Source: Tyto alba
Lineage: Eukaryota > Chordata > Aves > Strigiformes > Tytonidae
NCBI RefSeq assembly: GCF_018691265.1
Contig: NW_024881296.1
Span: forward strand, 1,202,779-1,266,778
Reading direction: 5' to 3'
Length of the DNA stretch: 64,000 nucleotides
Below, piece after piece: positions 40,312 to 40,397 of the stretch. A model generated the notes under the pieces. It made no database searches. It saw only the letters and a program-made list of their open reading frames with translations, and had not been told where the DNA came from. A program made the translations under genes and the position numbers. Within the stretch, counting starts at the first letter, position 1; each line of letters begins with the position of its first letter.

Positions 40312-40397
<86 letters not shown>
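40312..40397. repeat. Uninterrupted poly-C tract (C86)
   Basis: Eighty-six consecutive cytosines begin 122 bases after the exon 1 donor, inside the CpG island. A pure C/G homopolymer of this length is exceptional for a vertebrate genome. It may be a true expanded mononucleotide repeat (G-quadruplex on one strand, i-motif on the other) or a sequencing or assembly artefact, since two-colour Illumina chemistry produces false poly-G in hard GC-rich templates. It disrupts no exon. Confidence 0.97.

What the first reader, a model, noticed from the sequence alone, without database searches (positions are those of the whole stretch)
40312..40397. 86 consecutive cytosines just inside SLC1A4 intron 1
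A pure C86 run, 122 bp after the exon 1 donor and within a CpG island, is extraordinary for a vertebrate genome. If real, it would be a strong G-quadruplex/i-motif and a replication- and transcription-blocking, length-unstable tract next to a promoter. If false, it is a textbook assembly error: two-colour Illumina reads default to G when signal is lost, and GC-rich first exons of bird genes are notorious for this. The window has two other C18 runs (2711 and 19375), so C-runs do exist here, but not at this scale.
Basis: partly seen in the sequence, partly recalled or inferred. Interest (0 to 1): 0.75.

Follow-up and report, generated by a model that had tools for sequence, protein, structure and literature searches.

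The report
Long poly-C tract in SLC1A4 intron
A bird genome carries a run of 86 identical C letters just after the first exon of an amino-acid transporter gene; it is one of dozens of such very long runs in the same genome, so it is most likely a real but ordinary, over-grown and unstable repeat whose exact length is uncertain.

Summary
The next longest C/G run in the window is 18. In the same 1.25-Gb, 70-contig assembly, C/G runs of 30 or more are common (18 in the first 40.7 Mb of contig C1). At least 31 runs reach 50, and four reach 121 to 156. C86 is sixth longest of the 24 measured.

The 25 of 31 places whose contig length I saw lie 0.2 Mb or more inside their contigs, some with T-run junctions or single A/T interruptions. 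In two bacterial and viral collections, 147 of 166 runs of 60 or more sit at the end of the held stretch, and 112 of those read outward as G, the two-colour artefact signature. So the Illumina poly-G reading is disfavoured. Best reading: a genuine, slippage-expanded mononucleotide microsatellite. Its exact length is unverified, since long homopolymers are hard for all platforms. G-quadruplex/i-motif capacity follows from sequence; any effect on SLC1A4 is inference. Known kind, mildly interesting.

The parts
40312..40397 (+). uninterrupted C86 on the coding (non-template) strand; G86 on the template strand
40302..40406 (+). 105-nt pure polypyrimidine tract holding the run (shoulders TCCCCCTCTT and TTTCTTCTC)
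39682..40190 (+). SLC1A4 exon 1 coding part (169 codons plus 2 nt), SDF domain
40191..50932 (+). SLC1A4 intron 1 (GT..AG, 10,742 nt); the run is nucleotides +122 to +207
50933..50975 (+). SLC1A4 exon 2 (NLFPANLVAAAFRT), 43 nt, by reading the splice signals
58881..59027 (+). downstream SLC1A4 exon, SDF profile 132-180
62416..62649 (+). downstream SLC1A4 exon, SDF profile 179-254
63743..63967 (+). downstream SLC1A4 exon, SDF profile 249-323
39400..40311 (.). CpG-island-like stretch over the promoter and exon 1; ends at the run

Best explanation
The C86 run is a genuine mononucleotide (C/G) microsatellite allele in SLC1A4 intron 1 of a bird. It most likely grew by replication slippage, perhaps helped by G4/i-motif stalling, from a C-rich polypyrimidine tract (TCCCCCTCTT..C..TTTCTTCTC). 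It belongs to a genome-wide class of very long C/G runs in this assembly. Shown: the run, its intronic place, its pyrimidine shoulders and the class in the same assembly. Inferred: the slippage mechanism, length polymorphism between individuals, G4/i-motif folding, and at most a mild template-strand brake on SLC1A4 transcription. The stated length should be read as 'very long, roughly 86'.
For: The same assembly (1,249,855,448 b, 70 contigs) has 3,928 overlapping C30 matches and 588 overlapping C60 matches. It has 21 T-preceded and 10 G-preceded runs of 50 or more (A-preceded runs could not be counted). For 25 of these 31 places I saw the contig length, and all 25 are at least 0.21 Mb from a contig end. 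Measured lengths are graded from 30 to 156. Several runs are imperfect in the way microsatellites are: C131-A-C60, C156-A-C14-T-C142-T-C8, C69-A-C26, and a T-run with one C leading into C92. The window's run sits in a 105-nt polypyrimidine tract. The 64 kb around it is N-free, the exon 1 region at 76% GC is assembled with an open frame, and a 1.1-kb minisatellite ending 0.6 kb upstream of the start codon, with exact repeats up to 147 bp, is assembled without gaps; this fits a long-read assembly, though the sequencing method was not seen.
Against: No reads, no second individual and no related bird intron could be examined. [quoted passage not shown] Eighty-six is close to the typical length of the C/G runs in bacterial and viral contigs (medians 76 and 82; one internal GTDB run is also exactly 86), and 19 of those 166 runs are internal. 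Pyrimidine shoulders do not settle it: 0 of 18 own-genome runs of 30 or more on C1 have both shoulders of 5 nt or more, against 3 of 23 runs of 50 or more, the window's included.
Confidence: 0.75

Rival explanations
1. A real but much shorter C-run stands here, and base-calling, consensus or polishing error inflated it to 86.
For: Long homopolymers are error-prone on many platforms (PMC12458380, PMC11489684, PMC13202175, passages). The window's two next longest C-runs are only 18. The genome-wide class could share one systematic error.
Against: Earlier long-read chemistries tend to shorten homopolymers (recalled, no call). A/T interruptions and T-to-C junctions inside and beside several long runs are not expected from simple over-calling. 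Lengths in the class range widely, 30 to 156.
Confidence: 0.17
2. A two-colour Illumina poly-G tail was built into the assembly during gap filling or polishing, and no long C-run exists.
For: 19 of 166 runs are internal, 5 of them with N within 50 bp, so an internal artefact is possible.
Against: 147 of 166 such runs lie within 150 bp of the end of the held stretch and 112 of those read outward as G. None of the 25 own-genome places with known contig length is terminal. No N flanks the window's run. 0 of 37 control runs more than 20 bp from both ends have pyrimidine (or purine) shoulders of 5 nt or more on both sides, against 10 and 9 nt here.
Confidence: 0.04
3. The run is a kept regulatory element: G86 on the template strand folds into G-quadruplexes, or the C-strand or RNA recruits poly-C binding proteins (recalled), and tunes SLC1A4 by tract length.
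For: Position +122 in intron 1 of a CpG-island gene. G4Hunter mean -4.0, the extreme possible. In vitro, G4 sequences in the template strand lower RNA output (PMC7341879, passages).
Against: Other long runs are mostly not promoter-like: only 4 of 23 runs of 50 or more, the window's included, have flank CpG o/e of 0.6 or more, and 13 of 23 have flank GC under 0.5. No conservation or expression data. The only assay cited used a phage polymerase.
Confidence: 0.04

Closest known systems
Poly-G/poly-C (polyguanine) mononucleotide microsatellites of vertebrates, used as mutation-prone lineage markers (mouse, repair-deficient strain; PMC3564904, passages)
   Same: C/G mononucleotide tract, expected to change length by slippage.
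   Different: Much longer than typical: human C/G tracts of the GRCh38 census average 6.3 nt (PMC7302867, passages).
G-tracts of C. elegans deleted in dog-1 mutants, and d(TCCC)n i-motif tracts deleted in human PC3 cells (PMC8989526, passages)
   Same: G4/i-motif-capable homopurine-homopyrimidine tracts linked to instability.
   Different: No instability was measured here; uninterrupted C86 rather than (TCCC)n.
Bird GC-rich, repeat-expanded introns ('sequence stuttering', PMC12954441; leptin, TNF and others, PMC6792250; passages)
   Same: Intronic tandem repeat in a GC-rich bird gene of a kind that is hard to sequence.
   Different: Mononucleotide, a single tract, in a gene on a 41-Mb contig, not a dot chromosome.
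Poly-C/G runs at contig ends in public bacterial and viral assemblies, read here as two-colour poly-G artefact
   Same: Pure C/G run of similar length.
   Different: Those are mostly terminal and read outward as G; this one is internal, N-free and shouldered by pyrimidines.

Membership tests
C/G mononucleotide microsatellite | uninterrupted run of one base far above chance | tested here: met
   86 C; expected about 10^-44.6 in 64 kb
C/G mononucleotide microsatellite | one of many loci with graded lengths and imperfect members in the same genome | tested here: met
   at least 31 runs of 50 or more; lengths 30 to 156; interruptions
C/G mononucleotide microsatellite | length differs between individuals | not testable with these tools
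   one assembly only
Two-colour poly-G assembly artefact | terminal position reading outward as G, or next to N or a scaffold join | tested here: not met
   1.24 Mb inside a 41.46-Mb contig, no N in 64 kb; control population
Two-colour poly-G assembly artefact | absent from reads of other chemistries | not testable with these tools
   no reads
G-quadruplex / i-motif forming sequence | four or more G3+ (C3+) tracts with short loops | tested here: met
   pattern 40303-40397; G4Hunter -4.0
G-quadruplex / i-motif forming sequence | folds in cells | not testable with these tools
   needs G4/iM mapping
Bird dot-chromosome intron stuttering | gene on a dot chromosome with introns largely made of tandem repeats | tested here: not met
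   contig C36 is 41.46 Mb; intron 1 is 10.7 kb and TRF lists no other array within it at score 50

The most novel reading that the evidence does not exclude
This species tolerates an unusual load of very long pure C/G tracts (up to 156 uninterrupted in the assembly). The SLC1A4 copy is a promoter-proximal, length-variable G-quadruplex brake on the template strand, so that allele length tunes expression of a neutral amino-acid transporter.
Probability: 0.06. Interest if true: 0.6.

Novelty: new member of a known kind. Interest (0 to 1): 0.3.

Why it matters
Pure C/G runs this long are easily taken for sequencing junk or for tracts too unstable to persist. If the dozens seen in this assembly hold up in raw reads, they give natural test sites for G4/i-motif instability in a vertebrate, and a warning that homopolymer filters may discard real sequence. 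If they do not hold up, they mark a systematic length error in a bird assembly.

Tried and rejected
Tried without result: related bird DNA for the same intron (no collection of bird genomes is offered; no tool here fetches the contigs behind the proteins). The seven closest exon 1 proteins read (P0001-P0007, one of them named as a bird) all end at the same residues, DLVR or DLIR, and say nothing of the intron. Rfam at gathering scores and ARAGORN found nothing in the window. An RNA fold of intron nucleotides 1-310 pairs 4 of the 86 C, and with exon 1 added 8% of them: no support for an RNA structure. The left/right base asymmetry of runs of 50 or more (T 21 left against 12 right; G 10 left against 18 right) is weak, was not tested, and A was not counted. 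The pyrimidine-shoulder argument was kept only as minor evidence, because most own-genome runs lack two shoulders. CpG-island-like flanks: 7 of 23 sampled runs against 15 of 160 background 1-kb windows, a small sample that includes the window's run.

Considered and rejected: contamination (run and exons are collinear within one contig); a coding repeat (the antisense ORF 40187-40720 that reads G86 as polyglycine is a by-product of the run).

Literature: all ten paper search slots were used. Of each cited paper I saw passages only. In those listings I saw no paper on this SLC1A4 tract and no census of long C-runs in birds; that is no proof of absence.

Full report
The observation. The window holds exactly 86 consecutive C at 40312-40397. 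It is far beyond chance and far above every other C/G run of the window, the next being 18. It lies in a 105-nt pure polypyrimidine tract, 40302-40406, with shoulders TCCCCCTCTT and TTTCTTCTC.

The gene. The ORF upstream is SLC1A4 (ASCT1). Pfam gives SDF, the best solved match is Neutral amino acid transporter A, 7p4i, and the best match in the protein database is named SLC1A4 of the antbird Willisornis vidua at 91% identity; a turtle relative is at 76% and a gecko one at 64%, so a bird is very likely. Exon 2 (50933-50975, after a TTTTACAG acceptor) and three further SDF-matching stretches in order on the + strand fix intron 1 as 40191-50932. The run is intron nucleotides +122 to +207, at the downstream edge of the CpG island. 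The coding strand carries C, so the template strand carries G86 and the pre-mRNA carries a C-run.

The window's own assembly has 1,249,855,448 bases in 70 contigs; the window is C36:1202779-1266778 and C36 is 41.46 Mb. C30 has 2,223 + 1,705 overlapping matches. The listed places, the first only, resolve into 18 runs in the first 40.7 Mb of C1; all 18 were fetched and measured at 30 to 53. C60 has 444 + 144 overlapping matches. Runs of 50 or more preceded by T number 21 and by G 10; those preceded by A could not be counted because the machine did not answer, so at least 31. I measured all 21 T-preceded runs, two of the ten G-preceded ones and one A-preceded mate, 24 in all. The longest are 156, 142, 131, 121, 92 and then 86: the window's run is sixth of 24, and the eight unmeasured G-preceded runs and the A-preceded ones could push it down. 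For 25 of the 31 places the contig length is known; all 25 lie at least 0.21 Mb from a contig end, the window's at 1.24 Mb. Of the 38 stretches fetched around runs (18, 4, 16), one has N, some 400 bp from its run (L213); whether that N is a gap or a withheld stretch is not known.

Is it the two-colour artefact? I built a yardstick from two collections that I take to be largely short-read (contig names such as NODE_ and k141_). Of 166 C/G runs of 60 or more, 147 lie within 150 bp of the end of the held stretch (36 of 42, 111 of 124), and 112 of these read outward as G (23 and 89), as dark-cycle G calls would; 35 read outward as C. Nineteen are internal, five of them with N within 50 bp. Held stretches are blocks of contigs, so a few 'ends' may be block ends. 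The own-genome runs do not look like this: they are internal, and several are imperfect (C131-A-C60; C156-A-C14-T-C142-T-C8; C69-A-C26) or joined to a T-run. Against my reading: the control runs have median lengths of 76 and 82, and one internal GTDB run is also 86, so length alone would fit an artefact, and an internal place does not exclude one.

How sure is the length? Not very. A benchmark reports that assemblies still struggle with homopolymers over 20 bp (PMC12458380, passages), and another study left out homopolymers of 12 or more as problematic for HiFi (PMC13202175, passages). Without reads I take the run as real and very long, but 86 as approximate.

How it most likely works. Shown: sequence, place, class. 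Inferred: growth by slippage in a C-rich pyrimidine tract. Poly-G tracts served as mutation-prone markers in a repair-deficient mouse strain (PMC3564904, passages), and G4/i-motif tracts are linked to deletions in worm and human cells (PMC8989526, passages). For transcription, G4 sequences in the template strand lowered, and in the non-template strand raised, RNA output in a T7 in vitro assay (PMC7341879, passages); here G is in the template strand, so a mild brake is possible but untested. Other long runs in this genome are mostly not promoter-like: of 23 runs of 50 or more, 13 have flank GC under 0.5 and only 4, the window's included, have CpG o/e of 0.6 or more. In a sample dominated by shorter runs, 7 of 23 against 15 of 160 background kilobases had CpG-island-like flanks. 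No function is needed to explain the run.

Verdict. Observation confirmed; 'extraordinary' reduced to 'long tail of a class'; the Illumina artefact is unlikely but not excluded by reads. A new member of a known kind, interest 0.3.

Noticed in passing
37961-39059: G-rich 30-bp minisatellite, about 35 copies with a 316-bp higher-order period and exact repeats up to 147 bp, ending about 0.6 kb upstream of the SLC1A4 start codon; GC skew near +0.8.
   Followed up: partly
28214-28297: Perfect tandem duplication of a 41-bp unit (2.0 copies, 100% match): recent duplication or assembly slip.
   Followed up: no
L216 (C43:13357800-13358500): Near-pure poly-C array C156-A-C14-T-C142-T-C8 of 323 bp, holding the longest runs measured in this genome; its right flank starts TTTCTTCT like the window's.
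   Followed up: partly
L210 and L213 (C18 and C41): Two loci read C50 and C51 directly followed by exactly A15.
   Followed up: no
L181-L184 (C1:35.60-35.93 Mb): Four C/G runs of 31-37 within 0.33 Mb, against 18 runs in 40.7 Mb of C1.
   Followed up: no
window 8410-8448 and 19375-19392: T30-C9 junction, and a C18 with pyrimidine shoulders of 4 and 9 nt: smaller versions of the same tract type.
   Followed up: partly
L001-L161, GTDB and IMG/VR stretches: Poly-C/G runs of 60-193 sit mostly at the ends of public bacterial and viral contigs and mostly read outward as G: probably uncleaned two-colour artefact.
   Followed up: yes
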